From Pseudolysobacter antarcticus (GTDB taxonomy: Bacteria > Pseudomonadota > Gammaproteobacteria > Xanthomonadales > Rhodanobacteraceae), in contig NZ_CP035704.1 in NCBI RefSeq assembly GCF_004168365.1, positions 1 to 64,000 on the forward strand: a stretch of DNA of 64,000 nucleotides. The letters are read 5' to 3'. Made by a program: the position numbers and the translations under genes. Positions 9,762 to 46,770 of the stretch are shown here, piece after piece. The notes below the pieces were generated by a model, which was not told the DNA's origin, searched no databases, and saw only the letters and a list, made by a program, of their open reading frames with translations. Numbering within the stretch: the stretch's first letter is position 1; the number at the start of each line of letters is the position of its first letter.

Positions 9762-9764
9762 GTC

Positions 9765-10172: not shown

Positions 10173-10183
10173 GGAACAAAACA

Positions 10184-10600: not shown

Positions 10601-10626
10601 GGATTCCGGCGTATTCGTAAAATCTG

Positions 10627-10649
10627 CGGTCAGCATCAGTTGCTGACCG
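10627..10649. terminator. hairpin between convergent exbD2 and pdxJ
   Basis: CGGTCAGC (10627-10634) and GCTGACCG (10642-10649) form an 8-bp perfect stem with a 7-base loop in the gap between convergent genes. A T run is lacking, so termination may be partial. Confidence 0.5.
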
Positions 10650-10715
10650 TTAGTCTGGGAATATTCCGGCGGATTCAGGCAACGCCCTGCGATCCGCAAT
10701 ATTCAGACTGCTCTG

Positions 10716-11459
10716 TCAATCGCGCAAAATCTGCAGATAAGCCTGCACGGTTGCCGCCAGCCCCGCATACAGCGCCTCGCCAATCAGCGCGTGGCCGATT
10801 GATACTTCATCGAGAAACGGGATCGCCTGCTTTAGTGTGAGTAGATTGTTCTGGTTCAAATCGTGGCCGGCGTTGATACCCAATCCAGCGTCATGTGCAT
10901 CGTTCGCCGTCACGACACAAGCCGCCAATGCCGCCGCATGATCGCCCAGCGCAAACGCCTGCGCATAAGGCCCGGTATAAATCTCGATTCGTTCGGCGCC
11001 GAGGTCGGCGACACGCGCAATATCCGGCGATCCCGCATCCATGAACAGACTGACCCGACAGCCATAACTCTGCAGCTCCGCAATCAGCGGTCGCAAACGC
11101 TCTCCATCACGACGCAGATCAAAACCGTGATCGGAAGTCAGCTGAGCATCGCCATCTGGCACCAGCGTACATTGCGTCGGCCGTGTGGCACGAACCAACG
11201 CCAGCAGGCCCGGATAGGTGCCTTGCGCTGGCGCGAACGGATTGCCTTCGATATTGAGCTCGGTGCCGGCCAACAATGGCAATAAGGCAAAAACATCCTC
11301 GGCACGAATGTGTCGCTGATCGGGACGCGGATGCACGGTAATGCCGGCGCAGCCTGCAGCGATACACGCGCGCGCGGCTGTGGCTACATCCGGTTCGTTG
11401 CCGCCGCGGGAATTGCGCAGCACGGCAATCTTGTTGATATTGACGCTTAACGAGGTCAT
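10716..11459 (-). CDS. pdxJ: pyridoxine 5'-phosphate synthase
   Basis: PdxJ condenses 3-amino-2-oxopropyl phosphate with 1-deoxy-D-xylulose 5-phosphate to make pyridoxine 5'-phosphate, the last ring-forming step of de novo vitamin B6 synthesis. The 247-residue TIM barrel starts [17 protein letters not shown], and has [13 protein letters not shown] and the phosphate-binding end [20 protein letters not shown], all typical. Length matches E. coli PdxJ (243). It is convergent with the exb operon and has no obvious partner here. Confidence 0.96.
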
Positions 11460-11587
11460 GCGCGGTCCGACGAAAGAATGAATCGCTGGCTCGGAAAAAA
11501 GAGCCGTACGATCCTGCGATTATAACGTCGCTATGGCTGTTGGCAGCTAATTCTCGGCACGCGATTCACACTTTGAAAGTTGCCTTT

Positions 11588-12565
11588 CTAATTACAAGTC
11601 TCAGCATTTTGCTTCCACATCACCGGCTCCCAATAGGCCTTCGGATCGGTACGTTTGTCCGGGATCAGGCGCGCCGCGATCAGATAAGTAGTATTGGCCG
11701 CGACATCGACGCTCAGCTTTTGATAACGGCGATTCGAGGTGCGTGCGATATCGTTGAACGGTAAGTAGCGACTCTCGATCGCCTCGGCAACTTCCACGGA
11801 ATGCTGGCCAGCCGGAACCTGAAACGCATCCTGACCTTGCGGCCCCGGCAGTTTGCCGTCAATGCTGATGATCACGGCGCGGTGCAGGTTCTGCTGGCGC
11901 GGGGCGACATCGAATTGGCTGATGCGGCCGCAGCCGCCAGTTGCTTCGGTCGCGCCACCGGCGCTCGCCGTCAACAGCGCCGCGGCACCAAGTTGCAGGC
12001 GCATCGCCGGCAGATACAAGGCATGCACGGGCGCATTCAGCGCGAGCGATTTGCCATCGCGCCGCACGGCCAGTTGCAACGGCTCGCCGTCCTTGAGTTG
12101 ATCCACAGAATTTTTGAGCACACCGGGCGCAAGTGGCCGTTGTTCAGCATCGACACCCAGATTCTGCAGTGAACGCGAATTGACCGCAGTAACCAGGTCG
12201 CCGGTGCGCACACCCATGCGTTCGGCACTGCCGCCCGGCGTGATACCAAGCACATGCACGCCGTCGGCCGTGGCTTTGCTCGAATCGATTAGCAGGCCAA
12301 GATTATTGCTGCGTTGGGCGGGTTCGCTTACATCCAGCGCAAGCCGTTCGGGCGAGTTGCCCAAGGCGCCCGCTTCAGCCAGCCGCAGCAAAGTGCGGTG
12401 CATCTCTTCGTGCAAGGCGCGTTCGGCATTCGGCGGCGCTTGCGCCGAAATCGCGTTCAATGCTGGCGCATCTGTCGCAGCGGTATCCGTTGTGGCGAAA
12501 GCCACACCGCTCTGGCATATCGCCAAAACAAGTGTGGTACGCAATAACAGTCGATTTGTCTTCAT
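11588..12565 (-). CDS. secreted PDZ-domain protein
   Basis: The 325-residue protein has a signal peptide (about 1-25, ending GVAFA) and a PDZ-like domain (about 85-190) with LGLLIDSS, GITPGGSAERMGVRTGDLV and a carboxylate-binding-type loop. The C-terminal half contains a PEGA-like segment (AVIISIDGKLPGPQG followed by VPAGQHSVEVAE). No protease triad is visible. The ATG at 12565 has GGAG 8 bases upstream; a GTG one codon earlier is less well placed. It lies just downstream of the sigma/anti-sigma pair and may belong to the same stress-response transcript; that role is inferred. Confidence 0.8.
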   Translation of the reverse strand: MKTNRLLLRTTLVLAICQSGVAFATTDTAATDAPALNAISAQAPPNAERALHEEMHRTLLRLAEAGALGNSPERLALDVSEPAQRSNNLGLLIDSSKATADGVHVLGITPGGSAERMGVRTGDLVTAVNSRSLQNLGVDAEQRPLAPGVLKNSVDQLKDGEPLQLAVRRDGKSLALNAPVHALYLPAMRLQLGAAALLTASAGGATEATGGCGRISQFDVAPRQQNLHRAVIISIDGKLPGPQGQDAFQVPAGQHSVEVAEAIESRYLPFNDIARTSNRRYQKLSVDVAANTTYLIAARLIPDKRTDPKAYWEPVMWKQNAETCN

Positions 12566-12592
12566 CACCGTATCTCCATCAATTCGGATCGA

Positions 12593-13081
12593 TCAGATCC
12601 GGGTCACCACTTGCTGCTGACTACGAACAGTCAGCAGCGTATTCAGCAGCGCGTAACGGCGCTGCCACAACGACATGAGTTCTGCATTGCCGGCCGCATG
12701 GTCGTAAGCAGCCTGCAAACAGTGATCGAGCGCCTCCAGATCGGCCTGCTCAGGCAGCAGCGACGCGGCCTGACCCATCTGTGCGTTATCCAGATCCTGC
12801 AAGCGCAATTCGAGTTGTTGCGCCATCGACTTCCAGTCGACCGACTGTGCAGCGTTCGGCGTGCGATCAATGAAGCGCGGCAGCAGTACCATCGCGATCA
12901 GTAAACACGCCGCCGCGGCCAGACTTGCGAACCAGCGTCGGCGCCGGCGTTGTTGCAATTGCAGTGCGTGCGCGGCGACGATGCGCGGCCACAGCGCCGC
13001 AGGCGGATCGACGTCCGCACCACTGAGCAACTTGCGCAGTCGCGGGCTCGAAGTAACGAGTTGAGTAGTCGAATCAGACAT
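12593..13081 (-). CDS. probable anti-sigma factor (single-span membrane protein)
   Basis: The protein is 162 residues from the ATG at 13081. A cytoplasmic N-terminal half of about 50 residues contains SSPRLRKLLSGADVDPPAALW, an arginine-rich stretch (QQRRRRRW) precedes one membrane span (SLAAAACLLIAMVLL), and a periplasmic domain of about 85 residues follows. No zinc-binding HxxxCxxC was seen. The start overlaps the end of the ECF sigma gene in ATGTCTGA, an 8-base overlap typical of translationally coupled sigma/anti-sigma pairs. The function is inferred from topology and neighbourhood. Confidence 0.65.
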   Translation of the reverse strand: MSDSTTQLVTSSPRLRKLLSGADVDPPAALWPRIVAAHALQLQQRRRRRWFASLAAAACLLIAMVLLPRFIDRTPNAAQSVDWKSMAQQLELRLQDLDNAQMGQAASLLPEQADLEALDHCLQAAYDHAAGNAELMSLWQRRYALLNTLLTVRSQQQVVTRI

Positions 13082-13643
13082 GGTCGGCGCTCGAGGTTGG
13101 TGCGGCGGCATCCACCAGCGCGTTCAAGCGTTGCAGGCTGCGTGCAAGCAGGGATTTGGAATAGCTTTCCGTCTGGCCGAACAAACTCGCCATTTCCTTG
13201 TGGGTATAACCTTCGAGTTCGTGCAAAACCAGCACGGCGCGCGCGCGTGGGCTGAGTTGTCGCAGCAAAACCTGGACATCGATCGCCTGTTCCGCGCCCG
13301 GCTCGATGGCGGCTTGTTGCGCCAGAATAGCTTCGGCATCGACACCATCAAGGCGCCGTTCACGGCGCAGAAAATCGATGCTCGCGTTCACCGTCAAACG
13401 TTTCAGCCACGCGCCAAAAGGGGCCTCGCCACGAAAGCTGCGCAGCATGCTCATGAGTTTGAGAAACACTTCTTGCACGATATCCTCCGCGGTTGCCGCG
13501 TTGCCGAGCAAGCGCAGCGCCAAGTTGTAACAAGCACGTCCATACAAACGATAAATGTCGGCAAACGCCGCCATGTCGCCGCGCAAGGCACGCGCCAGAA
13601 TTTCCAGGTCGAGAATCTGGGCGAAGCCAGTGTTTGAACTCAT
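13074..13643 (-). CDS. RNA polymerase sigma factor, ECF subfamily
   Basis: The 189-residue protein has the two-domain ECF layout. Region 2 (about 20-90) contains YRLYGRACYNLALRLLG and AEDIVQEVFLKL, and region 4 (about 128-178) has LSPRARAVLVLHELEGYTHKEMASL, a helix-turn-helix for the -35 element. It resembles RpoE-like factors that respond to envelope stress. It lies 26 bases downstream of the phosphopantetheinyl transferase gene and overlaps the next gene, its likely anti-sigma factor, by 8 bases. Target promoters were not identified. Confidence 0.9.
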   Translation of the reverse strand: MSSNTGFAQILDLEILARALRGDMAAFADIYRLYGRACYNLALRLLGNAATAEDIVQEVFLKLMSMLRSFRGEAPFGAWLKRLTVNASIDFLRRERRLDGVDAEAILAQQAAIEPGAEQAIDVQVLLRQLSPRARAVLVLHELEGYTHKEMASLFGQTESYSKSLLARSLQRLNALVDAAAPTSSADHV

Positions 13644-13669
13644 TGCATCGCTCTGATCGGTCTTGCCAC

Positions 13670-14395
13670 TCAGACGCAGCGCAGCGGCTCAGCGTCGCAA
13701 ACTGGTGCGTGATTGCCGCCGCTGGCGCTGGTGCGAAAACCGAGAACCTGGCGATCGGCACCGTGCCACGCGAGTGCACCGACATAACCCGGCGCAGGTT
13801 GCAACGCCACGACATGCCAATCGGTGACGTCGCCGCCGTCGTCAGTAATCGCGTGCAAATGGGTCGGCGTGCCGAGCGGATCGAGGGCGAATTCCAAGCG
13901 ATGCAAACCAAACGCGATGCCACGGCCCAAGGCCTTGAGCACGGCTTCCTTGCAGGTCCACAACCGTAGAAACGCCCATTGCTGCTGGGCTTCGGGCAAT
14001 GCCGCAAGTGCCGCGAATTCACTCGCGCAAAAAAACCGTTGCGCCAGCGCGAGCACCGAACGACGGCGTCCGCTGTGTTCGAGATCGACACCGATCGATT
14101 GGCCCTGCGCGAGTGCAACCAGCGCGTGATCGCCGCTGTGGGAAAGATTGAAATCCATGTCGTGTGCAGGATCGAAGAATGGTTTGCCATGTGCGGTGCG
14201 ATCGAGCGCAACATCCGCCAGGTGCGGATAGTGGATCAGCACCGGCGCCAGCAAAACACGCGCCGTCGCATTCGGATCGTCTGATCGTGGCGATGCCTTG
14301 GGCACATGATCGCCAACCCAGACATGGATGGTCTGACCGTCGATAGCTGGCGCGCGCTCAACAATACGAAACGCGGTGGAGTCGAGTACTAACAT
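13670..14395 (-). CDS. 4'-phosphopantetheinyl transferase superfamily protein
   Basis: This enzyme moves the phosphopantetheine arm of CoA onto a serine of carrier proteins. From the ATG at 14395 it has 241 residues, the Sfp-type double-domain size. Motifs are FNLSHSGDHALVAL (about 82-95), magnesium-binding Asp104 and Glu106 in IGVDLE, and WTCKEAVLKALG (146-157) with Lys149 and Glu150. No carrier protein, polyketide or peptide synthetase gene is visible in the window, so it may serve fatty-acid ACP or distant clusters. Its placement ahead of the sigma gene is unusual. Confidence 0.9.
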   Translation of the reverse strand: MLVLDSTAFRIVERAPAIDGQTIHVWVGDHVPKASPRSDDPNATARVLLAPVLIHYPHLADVALDRTAHGKPFFDPAHDMDFNLSHSGDHALVALAQGQSIGVDLEHSGRRRSVLALAQRFFCASEFAALAALPEAQQQWAFLRLWTCKEAVLKALGRGIAFGLHRLEFALDPLGTPTHLHAITDDGGDVTDWHVVALQPAPGYVGALAWHGADRQVLGFRTSASGGNHAPVCDAEPLRCV

Positions 14396-14534
14396 GCCGT
14401 CATGCTTGCGGCTGGCGCGGCGATGGTCAAGTCGAATCCGCAATTGGTGGTCGACCACGCACCAAAGTCGTGGCGGCACCAAGCGCGTGGAGCGATACAA
14501 TGTTTCGCATGAGCGCTCTGGAAGGAAAATACCG

Positions 14535-17500
14535 TTGATCGCTGGCTGGGCCTTGCTGCTGGTTTCCGTCTGTTACGTCGGGCTGCTGTTCGGGCTGGCG
14601 TATTACGGCGACAAATATCCGCTATATCCGTCGCGACGCTGGTTGCGGCCGATCGTCTACAGCCTTGCGCTGGCGGTGTATTGCTCGTCGTGGACGTTCT
14701 ACGGCGCAGTCGGCAGCGCGATCAATGGTGGGCTGGCGTATCTGCCGATCTACCTGGGGCCGCTACTGCTGTTCGTCTTCGGTATCGGCCTGATGCGCAA
14801 ACTCGTGCTGGTCGGCAAGCAGCAGAACATTACCTCGATTGCGGACTTCATCGCCTCACGCTACGGCAAGTCGCACGGCCTTGCGGCACTGGTCACCTTG
14901 ATCGCGATCACCGCCGCGGTGCCGTATCTGGCGCTGCAATTCAAGGCCGTGGCGATGAGCATTAGCGTACTAAGCGAAGGCTCGTTGCAGATGGCGCGCG
15001 TGCCGATATTCCGCGACAGCGCGTTCTACATCGCATTGTTGCTGGCGGCTTTTGCGATCCTGTTCGGCACACGCCGGATCGATGCGACCGAACATCACCA
15101 TGGCATGATGCTGGCGATCGCGGCCGAATCCGTGGTCAAGCTCGTCGCGTTCGTCGCGGTTGGCATTTACGCGCTCAGCAGCAGCGGTATCAGCGCGGCG
15201 ATCGCGTTGCCCTTGGCCGAACTGCAAACACGCGGCCTGCCGTCGGGATTTTTTGCGCAGACCTTGCTCGCGTTCGCCGCCACATTTTGCCTGACGCGGC
15301 AATTCCAGGTCGGCGTGGTCGAATGCGAAAATCCGGAGGATCTGCGTCACGCGCGCTGGATCTTTCCTGCCTATCTGTTGCTGGTGAGTCTGTTTGTTTT
15401 GCCGATCGTCGCCGCCGGCACCCAAGCCGCGCGCGGTGCTGCGATGCCGGCCGATGTGTCGGTGCTCTGGCTGCCGCTGGCGCAAGGCAAATTGTGGCTG
15501 GCGGTACTCGCTTACGTCGGCGGATTTTCCGCCGCTACCGGCATGGTGATTGTCGCCAGCGTGGCGCTGTCGACGATGGTCAGCAACGATCTGATCATGC
15601 CCGCGCTGCTGCGTGTGCGCGCATTCCGCCTGGAGCATCGCGCCGATCTGAGCGGCGTCGTGCTCGCAGTACGGCGCATCACTATCTTCATGCTCGCGCT
15701 GCTCGCGTATGCGTATTACCGCGCCAGTACGCGCGATCAGAATCTCGCCTCGATCGGCTTGTTGTCGTTCGCGGCGGTCGCGCAATTCGCGCCGGCGATC
15801 ATCGGCGGACTGTACTGGCGTGGCGCGAGTCGTATCGGCGCGTTGTCCGGTCTGCTCGCCGGTTTTGCGGTCTGGATCTATACCTTGTTGTTGCCGAATC
15901 TTTCCGGTGCGGGCTGGTTGCCGCTTGACTGGATCAGCGCCGGGCCGTTTGGTATCAACTGGCTGCGGCCGCATGCGCTGTTTCAATTGCAGGGCTGGGA
16001 TCCGCTTACGCACGGCACATTCTGGTCGCTGCTGGCGAATATCGGGGCTTACATTTTTGTCTCGTTGCGGTTTCGCCCGACCGTGCAGGAACGTCTGCAT
16101 GCGGCGCCATTCCTCGAACCCGAGCAGCATCGTCCGCTAGCCAGCGTCAGCGAATGGCCGGGCCGCGTGCGGGTCGAAGATTTGCGTGCGATCGCGAGCC
16201 GCATCGTCGGTGAACGCAGCGTTGCGCGTGCGTTCGACGAGTACCGCGAACTCAGCGGACAGAGCATCAATCTGCACGCGACCGCCGATCGAAATCTGTT
16301 GCAGTTCACCGAACGTCTGCTCGCGGGCGCGATCGGCGCGGCGTCGGCGCGACGCATGCTGACCAGTGCGCTGCGCGGCAGCGGCATGGATCTGTCCGAA
16401 GCCGTCGCGTTGCTCGACGAAGCTTCGCAGGAGCTGCGCTTCAATCGTGCGTTGCTGTCATCGACTCTGGAAAACATCGCGCAAGGCATCAGCGTGGTCG
16501 ACGCTGAAATGCGCCTGGTCGCGTGGAACCGGCGCTATCTCGAAATGTTCGGTTATCCCGATGGCATGGTGCATATCGGTCGCTCGGTGGCGGATCTGAT
16601 CCGCTACAACGCCGAGCGCGGCGAGTGCGGACCGGGCGATATCGAGCGTCACGTGATCAAGCGCATCGATTACATGCGCCAGGGATCGCCGTATGTTTTC
16701 GAGCGCGTACGCACCGACGGCAGCATCATCGAGATGCGCGGCCGACCGTTGCCGGCGGGCGGATTTGTCACCACCTACACTGACATCACCGCGTACAAAC
16801 ATGCCGAAACAGGATTGCGCGAAGCCAACGAAAATCTTGAGCAGCGCGTCGACCAGCGCACCCAGGAACTCTCCGCCGCACTCGGCGCGCAACACGAGGC
16901 GATGCAGCAGGCGCAAGCTGCAAACCAATCGAAGACGCGCTTTCTAGCCGCCGCGAGCCACGATCTTTTGCAACCGCTGAACGCGGCGCGCTTGTTCACT
17001 TCGGCGCTGCGCCATCAGCCCGGGCTGGATGCAGAATCGAGCACCCTGGCGCAACGTATCGACACCGCGTTCAAAGCCGCCGAGGATTTGATCGAGTCGT
17101 TGCTCGAAGCTTCGCGCCTCGATGCCGGCGGTTACCAGCCCGAGATCAGCGTGGTCGCGCTCGGTGAATTGTTCGGCTCGATCAAGGATCAATTCGCGGT
17201 AGTGGCGAATGCACGCGGCCTGCATCTGCGTGTGGTGCCGACGCGCTTGCATGTGCGCAGCGATGCGCAGTTGCTGCGTCGGATTGTGCAGAATTTCGTC
17301 TCGAACGCGTTGCGCTACACGCGCGAAGGCACGGTGTTGCTCGGCGCGCGACGCGACGGCGACAACGTACGCATCGAAGTGTGGGATACCGGCCCCGGCG
17401 TCGCGCCGGAACAGCGCGCTGCGATCTTCGATGAATTCCAGCGTGGCAAACAAGCATCACCGTGGGGCGAAAAAGGTCTCGGCCTTGGTCTCGCCATTTG

Positions 17501-36252: not shown

Positions 36253-36735
36253 CTACAAACCAAGATCGCTGAGGCTTGGATGATCGAGCGGTCGCGGGCC
36301 GGTTCGATCCCAAAAGAATTTGCGTTCGGATCCATCGATCGCCACATCGTTGATCGAGGCATGGCGAATACGCATCAATCCGCGTTCGTCGAACTCCCAA
36401 TTCTCGTTGCCGTACGCGCGTTTCCAGTGGCCGTTTTGGTCGTGGCATTCGTAGGCAAAACGTACCGCGATACGGTTGTCGCCGAACGTCCAGAGTTCCT
36501 TGATCAAGCGATAATCGTGCTCGTTCGCCCACTTGCGCGTGAGGAATTCGACGATCGCCGCGCGGCCTTGGAAAAACTCCGAACGATTGCGCCACTGGCT
36601 GTCTTCGCTATACGCCAGCGCAACCTTTTCCGGACTGCGACCGTTCCAGCCATCTTCCGCGGCGCGAACTTTTTTCAGCGCCGTTTCGAGCGTGAACGGC
36701 GGTAGTGGTGGGCGAGTTTCCGCAGCGCTGGTCAT
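36253..36735 (-). CDS. DUF1348 / NTF2-like (SnoaL-fold) protein
   Basis: The 160-residue protein fits the DUF1348 branch of the NTF2-like superfamily: [20 protein letters not shown], a helical start, then [20 protein letters not shown] and the strand-rich half with [11 protein letters not shown] and [16 protein letters not shown]2-like folds make a cone-shaped pocket used by enzymes or carriers; the ligand is unknown. The ATG at 36735 is chosen because family members start near here. The first 19 bases of this gene recur after the intact glyS at about 44575, evidence that glyS and this gene were once direct neighbours. Confidence 0.85.
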
Positions 36736-37033
36736 GGTAATTCCTGTGCTGTTGGCAAATGGATCAGGCAACGTTGTGCAGTAATGAAATATCCGCGACT
36801 TCGAGAAACATACGGCGCAATTGCGCAAGCAGGCTCAGGCGATTGCGGCGTTTCGCCGTATCATCGACCATCACCATCACGCCTTCGAAAAACGCATCGA
36901 CCGGCGCGCGTAAATCAGCGAGATGCTTGAGCACATCGACGTATGAGCGTGTCGCGAGCAGCGGCGTTATCGTACTCGATGCTGCTGCTATCGCCGCATG
37001 CAAATTTGCTTCGGCGCCGGTTTCGATCTGGGC
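36717..37033. repeat. direct repeat A (left flank of the island)
   Basis: About 317 bases matching 44573-44889 without gaps, offset 7,856 bases, with about 43 mismatches by my count (about 86% identity). It spans the start of the DUF1348 gene, the short gap and the 3' end of glyS. Confidence 0.88.
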
Positions 37034-37045
37034 GCAAATCAACAA
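36764..37045 (-). pseudogene. glyS: severed 3' tail of glyS (glycyl-tRNA synthetase beta subunit)
   Basis: This minus-strand stretch encodes about 88 residues that match the C-terminus of the intact GlyS, including [18 protein letters not shown] and the ending [12 protein letters not shown], but the remaining 600-plus residues are missing. Over the last 67 residues only two amino acids differ from the intact copy, while about 20 bases differ, so most changes are silent. Hence the tail evolved in a working gene before it was cut off. Similarity stops at about 37035, where island DNA begins. Confidence 0.9.
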
Positions 37046-37113: not shown

Positions 37114-38118
37114 TCAGCGCACACTACGCTTTCCCCGCGATGATGGTGAACCACTGGCTGTCACGCCTTGCATGTGCCAACCTGGAAGTGCCGTGGGTAC
37201 CTGCACTCCCGGCGCCTCCGGCAATTTTTCGAGGAGCGTGTCGATGGCGAGGCGCACACGTAGCGGCATGTATTCAGTCACCGGCCAGACCGCATGACTA
37301 TCCATCGACGCTGAGGGCCGGTTCTCCCATAACGGAACAAGCGTACCGGCCTGAATGCGCTCACGGATAAGCCAGTGCGGCAACCACGCAAGACCCATGC
37401 CTGCCACGGCCGCATCGGCGGTCACTTCCAAATCATCAAGCCGCAGGCGCGAAGCGAGCGTGACTTCGATCAAGCGACCATTCGCGTCAGCTAACAGCCA
37501 AGGATACGGATTGCCCATGCGACAGTGAATCAATACATCGTGCGTGGCCAGAGCTTCGATAGTGTCAGGCTGGCCACGGGCTTTCAGGTAGTCAGGAGCC
37601 GCACATAACGCCTTCGGCTGAGTCGCCAAACGTCGGGCACACAGTCCAGTCGCCTCGCCCAATGCGCCGTTTCGGATACCGAGGTCGAATCCTTCGGCAA
37701 TCAGGTCGACCGGACGGTCGCTGAAACTCAGCTCGAGCTCCAATTTGGGGTGCAGCCTTGCAAAGTCCAGCAGGATTGGGGCGATGCAGTAGCGGCCGAA
37801 CAACACCGGCATGGTGATCCGCAAACGTCCGGCGACTTCCTGTTTGCCGGATTCCAGTTGCGATTCGGCAGCGCGCAGTTCTTCGATCGCCCGCAAGCAT
37901 CGCTCGTAGTAGACATGACCGTCTTCGGTCAGGTTCTGGGTTCGCGTCGTGCGATGAAAGAGGCGCACGCCAAGGCGTGTTTCCAGGCGCGCGATCGCTT
38001 TGCCCACAGCTGATCGTGATAGCGCCAGGCGTTTGGCCGCGCGGGCAAACCCGCCCGCCCCCACCGCCTCTACGAAGACCGCCACGCCATCCAACCGACC
38101 TCGCATGTCCGTTTTCAT
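37114..38118 (-). CDS. LysR-family transcriptional regulator
   Basis: The 334-residue protein has the LysR winged helix-turn-helix at 7-65 (FVEAVGAGGFARAAKRLALS then KAIARLETRLGVRLF) and a substrate-binding-like co-inducer domain (about 95-305). The ATG at 38118 gives the normal start; upstream codons are extra. It is the only minus-strand gene of the island and is divergent from the quinone reductase gene, the usual layout for a LysR protein that controls its neighbour. The inducer could be an electrophile or aromatic acid handled by the island's enzymes. Confidence 0.92.
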   Translation of the reverse strand: MKTDMRGRLDGVAVFVEAVGAGGFARAAKRLALSRSAVGKAIARLETRLGVRLFHRTTRTQNLTEDGHVYYERCLRAIEELRAAESQLESGKQEVAGRLRITMPVLFGRYCIAPILLDFARLHPKLELELSFSDRPVDLIAEGFDLGIRNGALGEATGLCARRLATQPKALCAAPDYLKARGQPDTIEALATHDVLIHCRMGNPYPWLLADANGRLIEVTLASRLRLDDLEVTADAAVAGMGLAWLPHWLIRERIQAGTLVPLWENRPSASMDSHAVWPVTEYMPLRVRLAIDTLLEKLPEAPGVQVPTALPGWHMQGVTASGSPSSRGKRSVR

Positions 38119-38408
38119 CAATGCCTCCGCCAGCGGAAAAAAGGTTCGCGCGTCCTTCGCAACAGAAGGCTGTTTCCTTGTCAGGCTGCCTGCATGACGC
38201 ATTCCGCTCACACAGAACATAGCTTAGCTGTTTAATCGTAGCGTTTGATTCTACAAAGATGGGAAAAACTATCGCCACTAACGCACCCATTTCTACAGTA
38301 GCATTTTCTCCATTCAATGCGGCTGCAATGTTCGCGTCGGTGCCAATCGAATTGTTGTCACCTACAGCGCCGCATCCGTGACCATCTTTTTACCTTTGAG
38401 AACTCCCG
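38119..38408. promoter_or_regulatory. divergent LysR / quinone reductase control region
   Basis: These 290 bases hold no gene. At 38238-38254, GTAG-N9-CTAC with flanking AT-rich DNA resembles a LysR-type dyad (T-N11-A class). The region presumably contains both promoters. Confidence 0.5.
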
Positions 38409-38978
38409 ATGCAGATTTCGATTATCTATGACAGCGGCTATGGCCACACGGCCAAGCAAGCCCAAAGCGTGGCCGAGGGCGTGCGCCGGGTGGAGGGTAC
38501 AGAGGTGCGTCTGATCCCTGTGTCCGAAGGGCACATACCTTGGGAAGTGCTTGAGGCAAGCGATGCCATTGTCTTCGGCTCACCCACTTACAGTGGCTCA
38601 CCCAGCGCGCGCTTCAAGCAATTCTGCGAAGACTCCACCAAGGCTGCCTGGAACCAGATGAAATGGCGCAACAAAGTTGCCGCGGGGTTCACAAACTCAG
38701 GTGCGCAAAATGGCGATAAGCTGAACTCGCTGATCTCGATGGCGCTGTTTGCCGCTCAGCACGGCATGCTGTGGGTAGGTCTCGATCTGAAGCCCGGTAA
38801 CGACACCAGTCGTGGCAGCGTGCATGACCTCAACCGCTTGGGTAGCTGGCTAGGTGCGATGGCCCAATCCAACGGGGACCAAGGGCCTGATGACACCCCC
38901 ATCAAGAGCGATTTGGAAACCGCTGCTTACCTCGGACAGCGGGTGGCCGAGACCGTCCGCCGGCTCCAACCGACCTGA
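38409..38978 (+). CDS. flavodoxin-fold NAD(P)H:quinone oxidoreductase (WrbA-like)
   Basis: The 189-residue protein begins MQISIIYDSGYGHTAKQA, the FMN phosphate loop of flavodoxin-like proteins, and has FGSPTYSGSPSARFKQF and GFTNSGAQNGDK, matching the FMN-contact loops of WrbA and related reductases. These enzymes reduce quinones by two electrons and so avoid radical formation. It is shorter and less conserved than true WrbA, so I give no symbol. It is the first gene after the LysR regulator and probably its target. Confidence 0.87.
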   Translation: MQISIIYDSGYGHTAKQAQSVAEGVRRVEGTEVRLIPVSEGHIPWEVLEASDAIVFGSPTYSGSPSARFKQFCEDSTKAAWNQMKWRNKVAAGFTNSGAQNGDKLNSLISMALFAAQHGMLWVGLDLKPGNDTSRGSVHDLNRLGSWLGAMAQSNGDQGPDDTPIKSDLETAAYLGQRVAETVRRLQPT

Positions 38979-39008
38979 TCTTATTTCCCCCGACCACGGA
39001 GTCTCATC

Positions 39009-39307
39009 ATGAAACTGCTCTGCCTCGACATCCCTCAGCCTGGTGCCAGCCTGGAAAAGTATCAACCGCATTTGCTGGACGAAGCCCGCCACGCATGGCA
39101 GCTCTACAAGAGCGGCATCGTGCGAGATTTATATTTCCGCCAGGATCGCCCGGGGTTGCCCTCATCGCTGAATGCGATTCGGTGGAAGCCGCCAAACAAG
39201 CCTTGCGCGAATTCCCGCTGGCCAAGGCCGGGATCATTGATTGGGAAGTCATTCCGCTCGGTCCTTTCCTGAACTGGGAATTGCTCTTCGCACCAGGTAA
39301 CGCCTGA
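39009..39307 (+). pseudogene. frameshifted small YCII/muconolactone-isomerase-like protein
   Basis: The first frame encodes MKLLCLDIPQPGASLEKYQP and continues sensibly to about residue 49 (FRQDRPG). The sense then passes to a second frame (VALIAECDSVEAAKQAL to the end LLFAPGNA at 39307). One base appears to be missing in the GGGG run at 39152-39155. Joined, the product would be about 99 residues with the ferredoxin-like pattern of YCII or muconolactone-isomerase proteins. It is a broken gene, a programmed shift or a sequencing error; I cannot separate these. It lies 30 bases after the quinone reductase gene. Confidence 0.7.
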
Positions 39308-39393
39308 TATTTCCGGTCCTTCACTGTGTGTTTCGTGGCAGGCGTCGTTGCGCACTTCAACGGCACCAGTTTCGATAGAAAGGAATTCAGATC

Positions 39394-40443
39394 ATGAACG
39401 TTTTAAGCTACGCCGCTCAATCGGCCAGCGGGGATCTCGCGCCTCTTGCATTGGAGCGACGCGAGCCCCGGACGGACGACGTCGTCATCGACATACTGTT
39501 TTGCGGGGTCTGCCACACGGACCTCCACTTGGCTCGCAACCACGGCGGCTTCACCAGCTATCCCATCGTCCCGGGGCATGAAATTATCGGCCGGGTCCGG
39601 CAGGTTGGCGCCGCGGTGCAACGTTTCAAGGCGGGCGACCTAGTTGGCGTCGGCTGCATGGTCGATTCCTGCCAGCATTGTCAGCCTTGCCTGAAGGGAT
39701 GGGAGCAGGATTGCGCCGAAGGCGCGACTTACACCTACAACAGCATCGACAGGCATGACGGGATGCCGACTTTCGGCGGTTATTCCAATGCGATTGTGGT
39801 GACGGAGAAATTCGTTCTCACTTTGCCAGAAGGAATGGACCCCGCAGGCGCCGCCCCGCTACTCTGCGCCGGCATTACCACTTGGTCGCCGCTGCGCCGC
39901 TGGAATGTCGGCGAAGGCAGCAAGGTCGCCGTGATCGGCCTTGGTGGTCTCGGCCACACGGCGCTGAAGCTGGCGAAGGCACTTGGTGCCGACGTCACCC
40001 TGTTTACGCGTTCGTCCGGCAAGGAGAAGGACGCCTTCCGTCTCGGTGCCGATCATGTGGTGTTGTCGGGCGATCCGGCACAGATGGCAGCCGTCGCCGG
40101 CCGTTTCGACTTGATCATCGACACGGTGCCCTATGACCATGACGTCAACCCATATATGCCGACGCTGGTTCTTGAAGGCGTGCTAGTCCTGGTCGGCTAC
40201 ATGGGACCTCTGGGAACGCCGGTAAATGCCGGCGCGGTCGTGCGTGGTCGCAGGGCGATCACGGGCTCCTTCATCGGCGGTATCGCCGAGACGCAGGAAA
40301 TGCTCGATTTCTGCGGAAAACACGGCGTCGTCTCGGATGTCGAAATCATTTCCATCCAGCAGATCAACCAAGCCTATGAGCGCATTTTGAAGAGTGACGT
40401 GAAATATCGCTTCGTCATCGACATGGCTTCCCTCAAATCCTAA
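39394..40443 (+). CDS. zinc-dependent NAD(P) alcohol dehydrogenase (cinnamyl-alcohol dehydrogenase type)
   Basis: The 349-residue medium-chain dehydrogenase has the catalytic zinc site in FCGVCHTDLH and PGHEIIG, four structural-zinc cysteines in SCQHCQPCLKGWEQDC (C-x2-C-x2-C-x7-C), and the nucleotide motif IGLGGLGH. A serine/threonine-rich stretch after the second strand (FTRSSGKEKD) suggests NADPH preference. Relatives such as YahK reduce many aldehydes. In this cluster it probably detoxifies aldehydes. A gap of 11 bases leads to the DJ-1 gene. Confidence 0.93.
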   Translation: MNVLSYAAQSASGDLAPLALERREPRTDDVVIDILFCGVCHTDLHLARNHGGFTSYPIVPGHEIIGRVRQVGAAVQRFKAGDLVGVGCMVDSCQHCQPCLKGWEQDCAEGATYTYNSIDRHDGMPTFGGYSNAIVVTEKFVLTLPEGMDPAGAAPLLCAGITTWSPLRRWNVGEGSKVAVIGLGGLGHTALKLAKALGADVTLFTRSSGKEKDAFRLGADHVVLSGDPAQMAAVAGRFDLIIDTVPYDHDVNPYMPTLVLEGVLVLVGYMGPLGTPVNAGAVVRGRRAITGSFIGGIAETQEMLDFCGKHGVVSDVEIISIQQINQAYERILKSDVKYRFVIDMASLKS

Positions 40444-40454
40444 GGAACAAATTT

Positions 40455-41141
40455 ATGGCAGACATCAAGCCCGTCCTGTGCGTTGTTACCAGCCATCCGA
40501 TCCGTGGTGACAGCGGCGAGCCGACCGGTTTCGCGTTGGTCGAACTGACGCATCCGCTCGAAGTTTTCGAGGCGGCTGGCATCCCGGTGGAAATCGCCTC
40601 GATCCGCGGCGGTCATCCGCCGATCGACTTCTTCGACCTGTCTGATCCCGTCAACGCCCACTACTGGAAAGACAAGGGCTTCCGCGATGCGTTGGCTCAT
40701 TCGCTGATCCTCGGCGATCTCGATCCGTCACGCTATTCGGCGGTCTTCTTTGCCGGCGGCCATGGCACGATGTGGGACTTCGCCGATAGTCCGGCAGTGC
40801 AGCGCGTGATCCGCGAGATTTACGAGAGCGGCGGCATTGTGTCCGCGGTCTGCCATGGCCCGGCTGCACTGGTGAATGCAACGCTCTCGGACGGCAGCTA
40901 TCTTGTTGCTGGCAAGAAAGTGGCTGCCTTTACTGACGAGGAGGAAGCCGAGGTCAAGTACACGCATGTCGTGCCGTATCTGTTAGCGACCACTCTCAAG
41001 GAGCGTGGCGCGCTGCATCAGCCGGCGCCCAATTGGACGGAGAAGGTGGTGGTCGATGGCCGCCTCATTACTGGCCAGAACCCGGCTTCGGCTCATGGGG
41101 TTGGTCAAGCTATCGTCGATCACCTTGCCGCGAAGTCTTGA
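40455..41141 (+). CDS. DJ-1/PfpI family class I glutamine amidotransferase-like protein
   Basis: The 228-residue protein has the nucleophile elbow VSAVCHGPAALV typical of the DJ-1/PfpI and Hsp31-like branch, with an upstream glutamate in LTHPLEVFEAAGIPVE and GGHGTMWDF, an oxyanion loop. Relatives act on glyoxal-type aldehydes or as chaperones. It follows the alcohol dehydrogenase gene by 11 bases and very likely shares its transcript. Aldehyde or dicarbonyl protection is a reasoned guess. Confidence 0.9.
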   Translation: MADIKPVLCVVTSHPIRGDSGEPTGFALVELTHPLEVFEAAGIPVEIASIRGGHPPIDFFDLSDPVNAHYWKDKGFRDALAHSLILGDLDPSRYSAVFFAGGHGTMWDFADSPAVQRVIREIYESGGIVSAVCHGPAALVNATLSDGSYLVAGKKVAAFTDEEEAEVKYTHVVPYLLATTLKERGALHQPAPNWTEKVVVDGRLITGQNPASAHGVGQAIVDHLAAKS

Positions 41142-41230
41142 GCTGCGAAGAGTCGCGAACAATCGATGACGCGTCCGATCCAGAACCCCATTCTGCCAAT
41201 GTCACGTTCAAGATCACGGGAGCATCTCAC

Positions 41231-42208
41231 ATGAAGATCATCGCCATCGAAGAGCATGTTCTTCCTGATGAGGTGAGGCATGCGTGGAAGTCAATTCATG
41301 GTGCCGATGACGGGACGCTCGCGCTGAATGCGGGCGTTCTCGGCGAACGTCTGGCAGACCTCGCCGAGCAGCGATTGGCGCTGATGGACGAAACCGGCGT
41401 CGATGTGCAGGTTCTCTCGCTGACGACACCGGGCCTCAACAACCTGGGGCATCGCGGCATTGATCTGGCACGTCGTGCCAACGATCTCCTGGCCGAGGCC
41501 GTGGCTGCCAACCCTTCCCGCTTTCAGGCGCTCGCGGCGCTGCCATTCGCGGATGCCGACTCCGCTGCACGAGAGCTTCGACGCTGTGTCGAGGAGCTTG
41601 GTTGCAAGGGGGCCATTCTTTATGGCCGCGTTGGTGACAAAAACCTTGATCATGCGATGTTCGAGCCGACTTTCGCCTGTGCGGCTGAACTGGGCATCCC
41701 GCTGTTGATCCATCCGCAGATTCCGCAAGCGAGCGTTCGTGACGCCTACTATGCAGGGTTCAGCGCACCGATCGATCTCGCTCTGTCGACCTTCGGCCTT
41801 GGATGGCATTACGAAGCCGGCATCCAGTTTGTGCGTATCGTGCTGGCCGGTGTATTTGACCGGCATCCGAACCTCCAAGTGATCCTCGGCCACTGGGGTG
41901 AATTGGTGATCTTCTATCTTGAGCGCCTTGCCATGCTTGACCGAGTATCGGAACTGGTGCACCCCTTCGTCGACTACGTGCGCAACAATCTCTATCTGAC
42001 CGCCAGTGGCATGTTCAGCCCGGCCTATCTAGGTCGGGCGATCGAAGCGGTCGGCCTCGAGCGAATATTGTTTTCGACAGATTTTCCCTACCAGTACCGA
42101 CGGGGCGGGGATGCCCGTCGCTTTCTTGAAACGCTGCAACTGAACGAAGATGACAAGCGGAAATTCGCGCACGCCAATTGGGAAAAGTTGACCGGAATTG
42201 GGTCGTGA
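41231..42208 (+). CDS. amidohydrolase-family metal-dependent decarboxylase-like protein
   Basis: The 325-residue TIM barrel belongs to the amidohydrolase-2 group that holds gamma-resorcylate, 2,3-dihydroxybenzoate and ACMS decarboxylases. Candidate metal ligands are Glu7 and His9 in AIEEHV, a histidine in LLIHPQIP, one in LGHWGE and an aspartate in FSTDFPYQY. The Glu-x-His start, rather than His-x-His, points to the decarboxylase branch. The ATG at 41231 is chosen over an upstream extension that would overlap the DJ-1 gene. The stop overlaps the next GTG in GTGA. An aromatic hydroxy-acid is the likely substrate class. Confidence 0.88.
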   Translation: MKIIAIEEHVLPDEVRHAWKSIHGADDGTLALNAGVLGERLADLAEQRLALMDETGVDVQVLSLTTPGLNNLGHRGIDLARRANDLLAEAVAANPSRFQALAALPFADADSAARELRRCVEELGCKGAILYGRVGDKNLDHAMFEPTFACAAELGIPLLIHPQIPQASVRDAYYAGFSAPIDLALSTFGLGWHYEAGIQFVRIVLAGVFDRHPNLQVILGHWGELVIFYLERLAMLDRVSELVHPFVDYVRNNLYLTASGMFSPAYLGRAIEAVGLERILFSTDFPYQYRRGGDARRFLETLQLNEDDKRKFAHANWEKLTGIGS

Positions 42209-42684
42209 ACGTTCGCACGCTGCGTCTCGTATTCGCGCTGACGAGCTGCTTGTTCGCACACGTCGTCGTTGCTCAAACAAACCGGCCGCAGGCGGGAAAT
42301 GCAACCATGCAAACATTAGGATTGTGGACTTCAACCGCCGGTGGACGACCGGCCGCAGCGCCCTACGTGCGCATCGCGCAATTGGACGTCGATCCGCGGC
42401 ATCTCGAGGAATTCACGGCGGCACTTCAGGAGATCGCCTCCACGTCCATGCGCGAAGAGCCCGGCGTGTTCACGTTATATGCGGTCTCCCTCAAGGAAAA
42501 TCCGCACCGATTCCAGGTCTTCGAGATGTACAAGGATGAAGCTGCGTACAACGCTCACCGCGAGACCGCGCATTTTCAAAAGTTTTTCGAAACTACGCGA
42601 AAAATGGTGACGTCGCGGACATTTCTCGATGTCGATCCCGTTGTGCTGGGAGCCAAGGCGTATTGGGAGCATTCGGATCACTGA
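42205..42684 (+). CDS. exported antibiotic-biosynthesis-monooxygenase (ABM) domain protein
   Basis: The 159-residue protein starts with a GTG in a 4-base GTGA overlap with the amidohydrolase gene. A signal peptide (about 1-24, FAHVVVAQ) precedes an ABM fold (about 55-140) with YVRIAQLDVDPRHLEEF, EEPGVFTLYAVSLKENP and FEMYKDEAAYNAHRETAHF. ABM-domain proteins bind small quinones or act as cofactor-free oxygenases. An exported form suggests work on a periplasmic compound. Confidence 0.85.
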   Translation: MNVRTLRLVFALTSCLFAHVVVAQTNRPQAGNATMQTLGLWTSTAGGRPAAAPYVRIAQLDVDPRHLEEFTAALQEIASTSMREEPGVFTLYAVSLKENPHRFQVFEMYKDEAAYNAHRETAHFQKFFETTRKMVTSRTFLDVDPVVLGAKAYWEHSDH

Positions 42685-42900
42685 TGTCGATGCCGCTTAC
42701 GGTCGCTGCCACGATCATCACGAAACGTGCATGACAATAGCTTAGACCCGAGGGAATGGAGAAACGATGTGCAGCCTCTGAGAAAGTAGCGCTCAATTTC
42801 CGAATCTTTAGTCGGTGCTATGGCGTTTCTCACGGGTCTCGTCGCCATGCCGCGCCACGCGATCAACTCCACGTCTTCCATTAGCGAGCAACTCATCACT

Positions 42901-43551
42901 ATGACCACCGAAACTACGCTTTCCGCGAAACAGCAGGCGATCGTACCGATTGCGGCGCACGTTGCGATCGGAGATTTGGCGCGACTGAACATTGCGCTCG
43001 GACGGGGTTTGGATGTCGGCCTGTCGATCAGCGATTGCAAGGAAATCCTCGTGCAGATGTATGCGTATGCGGGATTCCCCCGTAGCATCAATGCCTTGAC
43101 CGAGTTGATGAAACTGCTTCAGACGCGTAAGCAGGATGGCATCGTGGACGCCCCAGGTCTAGATTCTTGCCCTGTTCCGCAGGGCGCCGCATTGCTGGAC
43201 GCAGGCACGGCGAATCAGACCAAGCTCTCGGGTGCGCCGGTCAAAGGCCCGCTGTTTGAATTTGCGCCAGCCATCGATCTGTATTTGAAAACACACCTGT
43301 TCGGCGACATTTTTGCGCGTGACAACCTCGACTGGCAGAGCCGTGAGTTGGCCACGGTCGCGGCTCTGGCTGCCATGCCGGGCGTGGAGCCCCAGCTGCA
43401 GGCCCACATGCGCATCAGTATGAACGTGGGCGTAAGCGCTGCCCAATTGCGGCAGCTCATTCAGGTGCTTGCCGAACGCGTAAGCGCGGATGCGGGCCAG
43501 CGCGCGCAAGCCGCACTGGACGCCCAATTGTCGAGTGGCCTGCAGCATTGA
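42901..43551 (+). CDS. carboxymuconolactone decarboxylase family protein (AhpD-like fold)
   Basis: The protein has two copies of the CMD/AhpD-like helical domain: KEILVQMYAYAGFPRSINAL (first) and DWQSRELATVAALAAMPGVEPQLQAHMRISMNVG (second). The CxxC of AhpD peroxidase partners is absent. I use the ATG at 42901 because recognisable family sequence begins there (TLSAKQQAIVPIAAH), giving 216 residues; an in-frame ATG at 42820 would add 27 residues without a clear signal peptide. Neither has a strong ribosome site. Confidence 0.85.
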   Translation: MTTETTLSAKQQAIVPIAAHVAIGDLARLNIALGRGLDVGLSISDCKEILVQMYAYAGFPRSINALTELMKLLQTRKQDGIVDAPGLDSCPVPQGAALLDAGTANQTKLSGAPVKGPLFEFAPAIDLYLKTHLFGDIFARDNLDWQSRELATVAALAAMPGVEPQLQAHMRISMNVGVSAAQLRQLIQVLAERVSADAGQRAQAALDAQLSSGLQH

Positions 43552-43643
43552 TCCATTGCGGTATCGGCACACCCTGCGCTATGCACCGCGGCTATCTTGA
43601 ATAGCCGACATTAGGTACGCACCCACAGAAAGGAGATTCAATA

Positions 43644-44381
43644 ATGAACCTGACAGCAAACACCATTCTCATTACTGGCGGCGCGACCGGCATCGGGTTT
43701 GCGCTTGCGCGGCAACTATCGGAACGCGGCAACCGCGTCATCATTTGCGGACGGAACGCGGAAGCGCTTCAAAATGCGCAGGCAGAAGTACCGGCACTCG
43801 TCACGCGTGTTTGCGATGTCGCTGATACCGAAAGCCGCCGTGCGATGGTGGAATGGTTGAATACGGCACACCCCACGCTCAACATGCTGATCAACAATGC
43901 CGGCGTTCAATATCGTCGCATATTTGAAGAAGCCGTCGCGCTCGACGAGCTCGAGAAAGAGGTGGTCATCAACTTCACCGCGCCGATCCGCCTGATCGGT
44001 GAAATGCTGCCTTTGCTGAAACGGCAACCGCAATCAACCGTGATCAATGTCAGTTCCGGCCTTGCGTTCGTACCCATGGCGGATATCCCGGTCTACTGCG
44101 CCACCAAGGCGGCCATGCACTCCTTCACACTCAGTTTGCGGCACCAGCTAAAAAGAACGGGTGTCAGGGTCGTGGAGATGGTCCCGCCCATCGTGGATAC
44201 TGGCCTGGGTAGCGGAACCCGCAGCAAGGGCACAGCCAGTCGTCCCGCGATGTCCCCGGAAACGTTCGCTGCAGAAGCGCTCGTCCAGTTGGAAAACGAC
44301 CATGACGAAATTTTAGTTGGTATGTCTGTCAATACACGTACCCAGGGCGAGGCGTTGTTCGAACGCATGAACAGCGCCTAA
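43644..44381 (+). CDS. short-chain dehydrogenase/reductase (SDR)
   Basis: The 245-residue Rossmann protein has the cofactor loop TGGATGIG, the NNAG motif, a catalytic serine in INVSSGLAF and the YCATK active-site tyrosine/lysine pair. The CGRN after the second strand is compatible with NADP(H). It resembles DltE-type oxidoreductases by style; the substrate is unknown. AAGGAG precedes the ATG. It is the last island gene before the glyS repeat. Confidence 0.92.
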   Translation: MNLTANTILITGGATGIGFALARQLSERGNRVIICGRNAEALQNAQAEVPALVTRVCDVADTESRRAMVEWLNTAHPTLNMLINNAGVQYRRIFEEAVALDELEKEVVINFTAPIRLIGEMLPLLKRQPQSTVINVSSGLAFVPMADIPVYCATKAAMHSFTLSLRHQLKRTGVRVVEMVPPIVDTGLGSGTRSKGTASRPAMSPETFAAEALVQLENDHDEILVGMSVNTRTQGEALFERMNSA

Positions 44382-44572: not shown

Positions 44573-44889
44573 TTTCCGCAGCGCTGGTCATGGTCATTTC
44601 TCTGATGTTTGCAGACGGATCACGCAACGTTGTGCAGCAGTGAAATATCCGCAACTTCGAGAAACATGCGGCGCAATTGCGCGAGCAGGCTCAGGCGATT
44701 GCGGCGTTTCGCCGCGTCGTGGACCATCACCATCACTCCCTCAAAAAACGCATCTACCGGCGCGCGCAAATCCGCCAGATGTTTGAGCACATCGACGTAT
44801 GAACGTGTCGCGAGCAGCGGTTTTATCGCACTCGATGCCGCGGTGACGGCTGTATGCAAATCCGCTTCGGCACCGGCTTCAAGCTGCGC
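44573..44889. repeat. direct repeat B (right flank of the island)
   Basis: This 317-base region matches repeat A gap-free at about 86%. It holds the 3' end of the intact glyS and, at 44575-44593, the first bases of a DUF1348-like gene that is otherwise missing here. It marks the right boundary of the imported segment. Confidence 0.88.
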
Positions 44890-46770
44890 GGAATCGATAA
44901 CGCCGATTTCGCTCGCATCGGCCTGGCGCAGGATATTGCCGATACGTTTGTTGGCGGCGGCGAGTGCTTGTGCTTCCGGCAGTTTGGCGAATTCGACGAC
45001 GGCATGCATGCGCTGATCGAAGTCCGATAACGTGGCCGGTTCCACCGCGCGTACCGCTTCGAATACATCGCCGCTTATGCCCTGGTCGGCGTAATAACCA
45101 CGCAAACGATCGAGGATGAAATCGAGAATTTCTGCGGCGAGTTCGGTGCGTCGTGCGCCCGCATCAAGTATCGCGGTTTTGCCATCCTTGCCACGCGGCA
45201 AACCAGCTTGCAATGCTGCTTCCGGCAGCAACGCAAATGCTTCGCTGAGCAGTCCGCGCAGATCCAGATCGAGCTTTGCTTCAATCAAGGTGCGCGCCAA
45301 TCCGAGTGCGGCGCGACGCAGCGCAAACGGATCCTTGTTGCCGCTCGGCTTTTGCCCGACTGCGAAAATTCCAGCGAGAGTATCAACACGTTCGGCGACG
45401 GCAATCACCTGCGCAAGTTTGCCTTGCGCGATGTTGTCGCCAGCAAAACGCGGCGCATAAAATTCATCAAGCGCCTGCGCGACATCGGCATGTTCGGGCT
45501 TGGCGCCTTGGCTCGCGTAATAACGCCCCATCACGCCTTGCAGCTCGGGAAATTCGCCGACCATGCGTGTCATCAGATCGCATTTCGACAATGCTGCCGC
45601 GCGTGTTGCGAGCGCCGCGTCTACACCGACACGATTCGCGATCACGCGCGCGAGTTCGGCCACACGCATGCTCTTGTCCCAGACCGAACCCAGCGACTGC
45701 TGATACGTCACCGACTTCAAGGCTTCGAGCTGCGCTTCGAGCGGTTGTTTGCGGTCTTCGTCGTAGAAGAATTTCGCATCGGCAAAGCGCGGACGAATTA
45801 CGCGTTCATAACCTTTGCGAATTTCCGCCGGATCTTTTGATTCGATATTTGCGACGCCGATGAAATGTTCGGTCAGTTTATTGTTTGCATCGAACACCGG
45901 AAAAAATTTCTGGTTGTTCTGCATCGTCGCGATCAATGCCTCGCTCGGCACGTCGAGAAATGCTTGATCGAACGTGCCATGAATCGCGACTGGCCATTCA
46001 ACCAGATTCGAGACTTCAGCAGTCAATGCGACCGGTTCGACAAATGCCAGGCCCAACGCATTGATCGTTTGCTCGACCACCGATGCGACCTTATTGCGGC
46101 GATCAATCGGATTAGCGATGACCTTTTTTTCCAGCAATTTGGTTTGGTACAAATCGGCGGAAACCACATCGAATTTTTCCGGCGCCATGAAACGATGCCC
46201 GCGCGAAAAACGATCCGATTTGATGCCGAAGATTTCTGCATCGATCACCTGCTCGCCGTGCAGAATCACGAGCCAATGTACCGGCCGCACAAAGCTGAAA
46301 TCGTGATCGCCCCAGCGCATCGCTTTCGGAATCGGCAGTGCTTTCAGGGCTTCGATCACGATCTCCTGCATCAATGCCGCGGTCGGCTGGCCAGGCTTCA
46401 CCGCACGATGTACAAACCACGCACCCTTGTCGGTTTCGAGTTTCTGCAATTGCTCGACCGTGACACTACAACTTTGCGCAAAACCGATCAGCGCCTTGCT
46501 CGGCTGGCCACTCGCATCGAGGGCGGCGTTCATGGCTGGGCCGCGGCGTTCCGAAGTTTGTTCGGGCTGTTCCGTCGCCACATGCGGCACCAGCACGGCA
46601 AGTCGGCGCGGCGTCGCAAAAAGCTTTGCATTGCTCGTATCGGCAGAGATGCCGCGCTTGGTCAGGCCATCGACAATGCCAGCGACAAAGGCTGCGGCAA
46701 GATCATCCAAAGCTTTCGGCGGCAGTTCTTCGGTGCCGATTTCGATCAATAAAGATTTGAGTTCAGACAT
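44620..46770 (-). CDS. glyS: glycyl-tRNA synthetase beta subunit
   Basis: GlyS partners GlyQ in the alpha2-beta2 glycyl-tRNA synthetase and supplies tRNA binding. At 716 residues it is slightly longer than the E. coli subunit (689). It begins [18 protein letters not shown] and has [29 protein letters not shown] and the C-terminal anticodon-binding domain ending [23 protein letters not shown]. The start overlaps the end of glyQ by 8 bases (ATGTCTGA). The last 90 or so codons recur in degraded context at 36764-37045. Confidence 0.97.

What the first reader, a model, noticed from the sequence alone, without database searches (positions are those of the whole stretch)
37114..44381. An imported set of redox and decarboxylase-like enzymes under one LysR regulator
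The segment holds a quinone reductase, a YCII-like protein, an aldehyde-type dehydrogenase, a DJ-1 protein, an amidohydrolase of the aromatic decarboxylase branch, an exported ABM-domain protein, a CMD protein and an SDR. Together they suggest handling of a quinone- or aldehyde-forming aromatic compound. I do not recognise this exact combination as a described pathway.
Basis: inference. Interest (0 to 1): 0.65.

Follow-up and report, generated by a model that had tools for sequence, protein, structure and literature searches.

The report
Mobile LysR-controlled electrophile-detoxification-type gene cluster
A block of eight enzyme-type genes with its own LysR regulator gene was inserted next to a housekeeping gene in this bacterium; the same block, with the same control region, recurs in rhizobia and many other bacteria, has apparently not been described, and most likely neutralises toxic quinones or aldehydes from plant or soil aromatics.

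Summary
The genes are real and in the stated places. Its stated refutation test, scattering elsewhere, came out in its favour. LysR, YCII-like, DJ-1 and amidohydrolase genes recur together in all 20 independent loci holding a close amidohydrolase (Rhizobium, Mesorhizobium, Bradyrhizobium, Caulobacter, Sphingomonas, Xanthomonas, Dyella). A WrbA-like flavodoxin, Zn-ADH, SDR and exported ABM protein join in many of them. A conserved 70-bp block between lysR and the operon marks a probable operator. A related cluster lies in Enterobacter, in Klebsiella (without DJ-1 and amidohydrolase) and in about 8% of complete E. coli genomes. The amidohydrolase has the fold and metal-site residues of hydroxybenzoate decarboxylases. 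No ring-cleavage enzyme recurs; the accessory genes are mostly NAD(P)H reductases (SDR, AKR, OYE). I therefore favour detoxification of a reactive quinone/aldehyde-forming aromatic over a growth pathway (0.6 against 0.25). The substrate is unknown. In this genome the YCII-like gene carries a 1-bp frameshift. I found no paper describing the set.

The parts
36717..37037 (-). Distal copy of the flanking repeat: last about 270 nt of glyS (pseudo-remnant), intergenic spacer and start of the DUF1348 gene
   Evidence: 86% identical to 44573-44893; alignment and codon-position counts
37114..38220 (-). LysR regulator (probable start near 38113), divergent from the operon
   Evidence: Pfam HTH_1 + LysR_substrate; kept in all 20 related loci at 55-84% identity
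38235..38303 (.). Conserved intergenic block, probable LysR operator/promoter region
   Evidence: Footprint over related loci; found in the window with a model trained without window and Dyella, E=6e-7, 24.9 bits against at most 9.1 bits in 20 shuffled windows
38409..38978 (+). WrbA-like flavodoxin / NAD(P)H:quinone reductase-like
   Evidence: present in 14 of 20 related loci
39009..39307 (+). YCII/muconolactone-isomerase-like 99-aa protein, broken by a 1-bp frameshift near 39150
   Evidence: split into two frame pieces in a whole-genome search
39394..40443 (+). Zn-dependent alcohol dehydrogenase / aldehyde reductase (YahK/Ahr/cinnamyl-ADH type)
   Evidence: present in 12 of 20 related loci
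40455..41141 (+). DJ-1/PfpI protein (Hsp31/1u9c type, AVCHGP nucleophile motif)
   Evidence: present in 20 of 20 related loci
41231..42208 (+). Amidohydrolase-2 of the hydroxybenzoate-decarboxylase branch (ExH...HP...GHWGE...D motif)
42205..42684 (+). Exported ABM-domain protein; its GTG start overlaps the amidohydrolase stop
   Evidence: signal-peptide-like N-terminus shared by most homologous neighbours
42820..43551 (+). Two-domain CMD (carboxymuconolactone decarboxylase-like) protein
   Evidence: 60% identical copy in the related Paraburkholderia sprentiae plasmid cluster
43644..44381 (+). SDR oxidoreductase
   Evidence: 67-71% identical SDR within 10 kb in 8 of 20 related loci and 71% in the gammaproteobacterial locus L173
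44573..44893 (-). Proximal copy of the flanking repeat (3' end of the intact glyS, 44620-46770, plus the first codons of a DUF1348 gene)

Best explanation
It is a horizontally transferred, LysR-controlled cluster that most likely detoxifies a reactive (quinone- or aldehyde-forming) aromatic compound. LysR binds the conserved block between its gene and the flavodoxin gene and, with an inducer, turns on the operon flavodoxin/WrbA-YCII-ADH-DJ-1-amidohydrolase-ABM. The WrbA-like enzyme reduces quinones by two electrons, the ADH and SDR reduce aldehydes and ketones, the DJ-1 protein removes glyoxal-type carbonyls, the amidohydrolase removes a carboxyl group from a phenolic acid, and YCII-like, CMD and exported ABM proteins process labile quinone or lactone intermediates. 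Shown by computation: gene families, co-inheritance, conserved control block, insertion between glyS and DUF1348, and the fold and metal-site residues of the amidohydrolase. Inferred: LysR binding, co-expression, reactions, substrate and benefit.
For: Co-inheritance: 20 of 20 loci with a close amidohydrolase also hold LysR, YCII-like and DJ-1. Accessory genes that recur are SDR, AKR, OYE, Zn-ADH, exported CMD/ABM/DUF1330 and a molybdopterin oxidoreductase/PaoABC; no ring-cleavage dioxygenase or CoA ligase family recurs. One control block per locus, and two in L046, where the operon is split, each upstream of one part. The same classes recur in Enterobacter and about 8% of E. coli, and without DJ-1/amidohydrolase in Klebsiella. 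The amidohydrolase fits hydroxybenzoate decarboxylases. Known electrophile-response sets use the same classes: nemRA-gloA (PMC12735817), arqI-gloA2 with an ABM protein induced by glyoxal (PMC12274486), and the Pantoea alt cluster with alkene reductase, SDR and CMD (PMC8417944).
Against: No expression or activity data. A hydroxybenzoate decarboxylase is not a typical electrophile-stress enzyme and is the most conserved member by selection of the loci. The YCII-like gene is broken here. SDR and CMD have no operator of their own in this model, and the rhizobial CMD is only about 25% identical to the window's.
Confidence: 0.6

Rival explanations
1. It is an upper catabolic (funnelling) pathway for one plant or fungal phenolic acid of the resorcylate/carboxyvanillate type: the amidohydrolase decarboxylates it and the reductases, YCII-like and CMD proteins process the products towards central metabolism.
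For: Amidohydrolase closest to gamma-resorcylate, 5-carboxyvanillate and 2,3-dihydroxybenzoate decarboxylases; YCII-like model closest to ClcF and TftG, enzymes of aromatic degradation; soil, root-nodule and lichen hosts of relatives.
Against: No ring-cleavage dioxygenase, CoA ligase or consistently linked transporter recurs over 20 loci. A related E. coli cluster has lost an intact amidohydrolase while keeping the reductases, and Klebsiella has none in its cluster.
Confidence: 0.25
2. It is a loose collection of stress-type oxidoreductases with no common substrate, kept together only by shared transfer.
For: Accessory genes vary between loci; SDR and CMD positions are not fixed.
Against: Fixed order and orientation of LysR, (flavodoxin), YCII-like, (ADH), DJ-1, amidohydrolase across several families, and a conserved block at the operon head.
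Confidence: 0.1
3. In this genome the island is decaying and without function.
For: Frameshift in the YCII-like gene.
Against: All other reading frames and the control block are intact; a one-base difference in a G run can also be a sequencing error.
Confidence: 0.05

Closest known systems
Gamma-resorcylate / 5-carboxyvanillate / 2,3-dihydroxybenzoate decarboxylases (amidohydrolase-2 branch)
   Same: Fold (TM 0.82-0.90), ExH metal motif as in gamma-resorcylate decarboxylase, IHP, GH-x-GE and active-site Asp kept
   Different: Only about 30-33% identity; the best solved match is the uncharacterised S. aureus 3nur; neighbours differ from a resorcinol pathway
Pantoea ananatis alt (thiosulfinate tolerance) cluster, PMC8417944
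   Same: Multi-gene, transferable set with an alkene reductase (OYE), an SDR and a CMD protein; OYE recurs in some relatives of the window cluster
   Different: TetR regulator, DsbA protein, transporter and aminotransferase; no amidohydrolase, DJ-1 or YCII-like gene among the genes named there
P. aeruginosa arqI-gloA2 and E. coli nemRA-gloA electrophile operons (PMC12274486, PMC12735817)
   Same: Carbonyl/quinone detoxification with reductases, an ABM protein (arqI) and glyoxalase activity
   Different: NemR is a TetR-family repressor (PMC7464077), glyoxalase I instead of DJ-1, no decarboxylase; much smaller
E. coli/Enterobacter cluster LysR-YCII-DJ-1-AKR-amidohydrolase-NAD(P)H oxidoreductase-AKR, with quinol monooxygenase-CMD in E. 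coli (L161, L163)
   Same: YCII-like 65% and DJ-1 68-69% identical to the window; same gene classes and divergent LysR
   Different: LysR only 30% identical, operator block not found, AKR in place of Zn-ADH, amidohydrolase 37% identical in Enterobacter and in pieces in the E. coli strain; also undescribed as far as found

Membership tests
Amidohydrolase-2 hydroxybenzoate decarboxylases | TIM-barrel fold and ExH / H / D metal ligands with GH-x-GE | tested here: met
   E8-x-H10, H162, H222, E225 and D285 invariant or at least 90% conserved and aligned with gamma-resorcylate decarboxylase; model pLDDT 88.8, PDB matches
Amidohydrolase-2 hydroxybenzoate decarboxylases | Decarboxylase activity on a phenolic acid | not testable with these tools
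   Needs an assay
WrbA NAD(P)H:quinone oxidoreductase (NCBIfam equivalogs) | Score above the curated cut-off | tested here: not met
   90 bits against 141 (PRK03767) and 83 against 132.5 (WrbA); filed as WrbA-like only
YCII-related domain (PF03795) | Score above the gathering cut-off | tested here: not met
   19.2 against 24 bits on an intact homologue; fold match to YCII/MIase proteins on a model of pLDDT 68.6
Bacterial aromatic catabolic operon | Ring-cleavage dioxygenase or CoA-dependent ring-opening genes linked | tested here: not met
   None among the recurrent neighbour families of 20 loci that were scanned
LysR-controlled divergent operon | Divergent lysR with a conserved site in the shared intergenic region | tested here: met
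   binding itself not tested
Integrase-borne genomic island | Integrase gene within the direct repeats | tested here: not met
   No integrase among the genes at 37114-44381; the genome's integrase matches lie elsewhere

The most novel reading that the evidence does not exclude
An undescribed, widely transferred LysR-governed pathway against one specific plant or fungal phenolic or quinone, in which a phenolic-acid decarboxylase and a new YCII-like enzyme family act with reductases and exported ABM/CMD proteins, and of which rhizobia, Dyella and a share of E. coli carry versions.
Probability: 0.3. Interest if true: 0.65.

Novelty: new variant of a known kind. Interest (0 to 1): 0.5.

Why it matters
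A fixed gene set with a conserved control block that moved among alpha-, beta- and gammaproteobacteria, including Ri and other rhizobial plasmids and about 8% of complete E. coli genomes, is a real system without a known substrate. Its regulator and operator give a direct handle to find the inducer, and the 99-aa YCII-like protein (annotated 'superoxide dismutase' in RefSeq records) is a small, strongly conserved protein with no assigned reaction.

Tried and rejected
Composition as evidence of import: GC does not differ. Transfer by an integrase within the block: none found. Neutral decay of the glyS remnant after an in-genome duplication: codon-position differences 10/2/26 and equal similarity of both copies to 29 relatives (40.6 against 41.1 of 90 residues) favour two functional alleles brought together, though the counts are small. 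The same-genus genome G001 could have shown the empty site, but its contigs end on both sides of the region. Reading the amidohydrolase as ACMSD-like: ACMSD chains score far lower than the decarboxylases. Operator in the Enterobacteriaceae clusters: not found. Literature searches for the gene set, for glyS as an insertion site, for orsellinate decarboxylase in lichen bacteria and for the hipA-linked E. coli cluster gave no description.

Full report
What is there. Pfam confirms every family named at 37114-44381, with two corrections: the 'aldehyde dehydrogenase' is a Zn-dependent alcohol dehydrogenase/aldehyde reductase of the YahK/cinnamyl-ADH type, and the YCII-like gene is broken by a one-base frameshift near 39150 (two frame pieces). 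Its homologues elsewhere are intact.

Insertion. A 321-bp segment (3' end of glyS, spacer, first codons of the DUF1348 gene) occurs twice, at 36717-37037 and 44573-44893, 86% identical, on either side of the block. Differences fall 10/2/26 on codon positions 1/2/3, and both copies are equally similar to 29 relatives, as expected of two functional alleles rather than one decayed duplicate. Housekeeping DNA of the one same-genus genome is 87-96% identical, so the second allele may come from a congener. I infer that the block arrived by homologous recombination through glyS. No integrase lies between the repeats.

Occurrence in the family. Only the window and G498 among 233 family genomes carry the close amidohydrolase; two others carry a 60% type. 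G498 matches Dyella acidisoli L030 by coordinates, so the family is taken to be Rhodanobacteraceae (inference). A tree of four concatenated proteins puts window and Dyella together at 100/100, among mostly alphaproteobacterial copies, with the Xanthomonas copy elsewhere.

The unit. A scan of genome contigs and plasmids with the amidohydrolase, followed by tblastn, gives 20 loci with a close copy (66-84% identical) and enough flanking DNA. All 20 hold LysR, YCII-like and DJ-1; 14 hold the flavodoxin and 12 the ADH at full length. SDR at 67-71% lies within 10 kb in 8. None of the more than 30 loci with 47-63% identical amidohydrolases shows the YCII-like/DJ-1 set. Other recurrent neighbours are exported CMD, ABM and DUF1330 proteins, DUF2255, AKR, OYE, an alpha/beta hydrolase, a second LysR and a molybdopterin oxidoreductase. 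A gammaproteobacterial locus, L173, has nearly the whole set, including SDR at 71%. Paraburkholderia sprentiae has flavodoxin, YCII-like, AKR, ABM, DUF1330 and a CMD 60% identical to the window's.

Control region. The lysR-flavodoxin intergenic region holds a conserved block of about 70 bp. A model trained without window and Dyella finds it in the window at 38254-38302 with 24.9 bits; 20 shuffled windows reach at most 9.1. In the rearranged Bradyrhizobium locus L046 it occurs twice, upstream of each half of the set. This supports LysR control of the flavodoxin-to-ABM operon. For SDR and CMD, membership rests on position and co-occurrence.

Enzymes. The amidohydrolase model (pLDDT 88.8) matches 3nur and then gamma-resorcylate, 2,3-dihydroxybenzoate and 5-carboxyvanillate decarboxylases, with the metal-site residues kept. 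The DJ-1 protein is of the 1u9c/Hsp31 type with the AVCHGP motif. The YCII-like model resembles ClcF, HI0828 and TftG at moderate confidence. The ABM protein is exported in most copies.

Wider relatives. Enterobacter mori plasmids, Klebsiella, and 432 of 5,426 complete E. coli genomes hold related clusters: LysR with YCII-like, NAD(P)H oxidoreductase, AKR and CMD, plus DJ-1, further AKR and amidohydrolase in Enterobacter and E. coli, but not in Klebsiella. The E. coli count is of genomes with at least 80% of a 4-kb query that begins in hipA; in the strain examined the amidohydrolase is annotated in pieces.

Mechanism and verdict. Recurrent reductases, a DJ-1 protein and the lack of linked ring-cleavage genes favour detoxification of a reactive aromatic (0.6) over a catabolic funnel (0.25). 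Known electrophile operons use the same enzyme classes (PMC12274486, PMC12735817, PMC8417944). Substrate, inducer and activities are untested. I found no description of this gene set in the held library, which lacks most subscription papers.

Noticed in passing
window 36717-37037 and 44573-44893: Diverged direct repeat of the glyS 3' end flanking the whole block; looks like integration through glyS without an integrase
   Followed up: yes
window 39009-39307: YCII-like gene with a 1-bp frameshift in a G run, intact in all other copies: mutation or sequencing error
   Followed up: partly
L163 (E. coli) 9463-16713: Related cluster next to hipBA in about 8% of complete E. coli genomes, amidohydrolase annotated in pieces
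   Followed up: partly
L023 5760-6059 and homologues: The YCII-like protein is annotated 'superoxide dismutase' in RefSeq records without visible basis
   Followed up: partly
(L025-L027): More distant amidohydrolases (about 60% identical) sit beside a lone LysR or HTH regulator, in two of three with an SDR, on plasmids; several deeper hits come from lichen-associated bacteria, whose hosts make orsellinate-type acids
   Followed up: no
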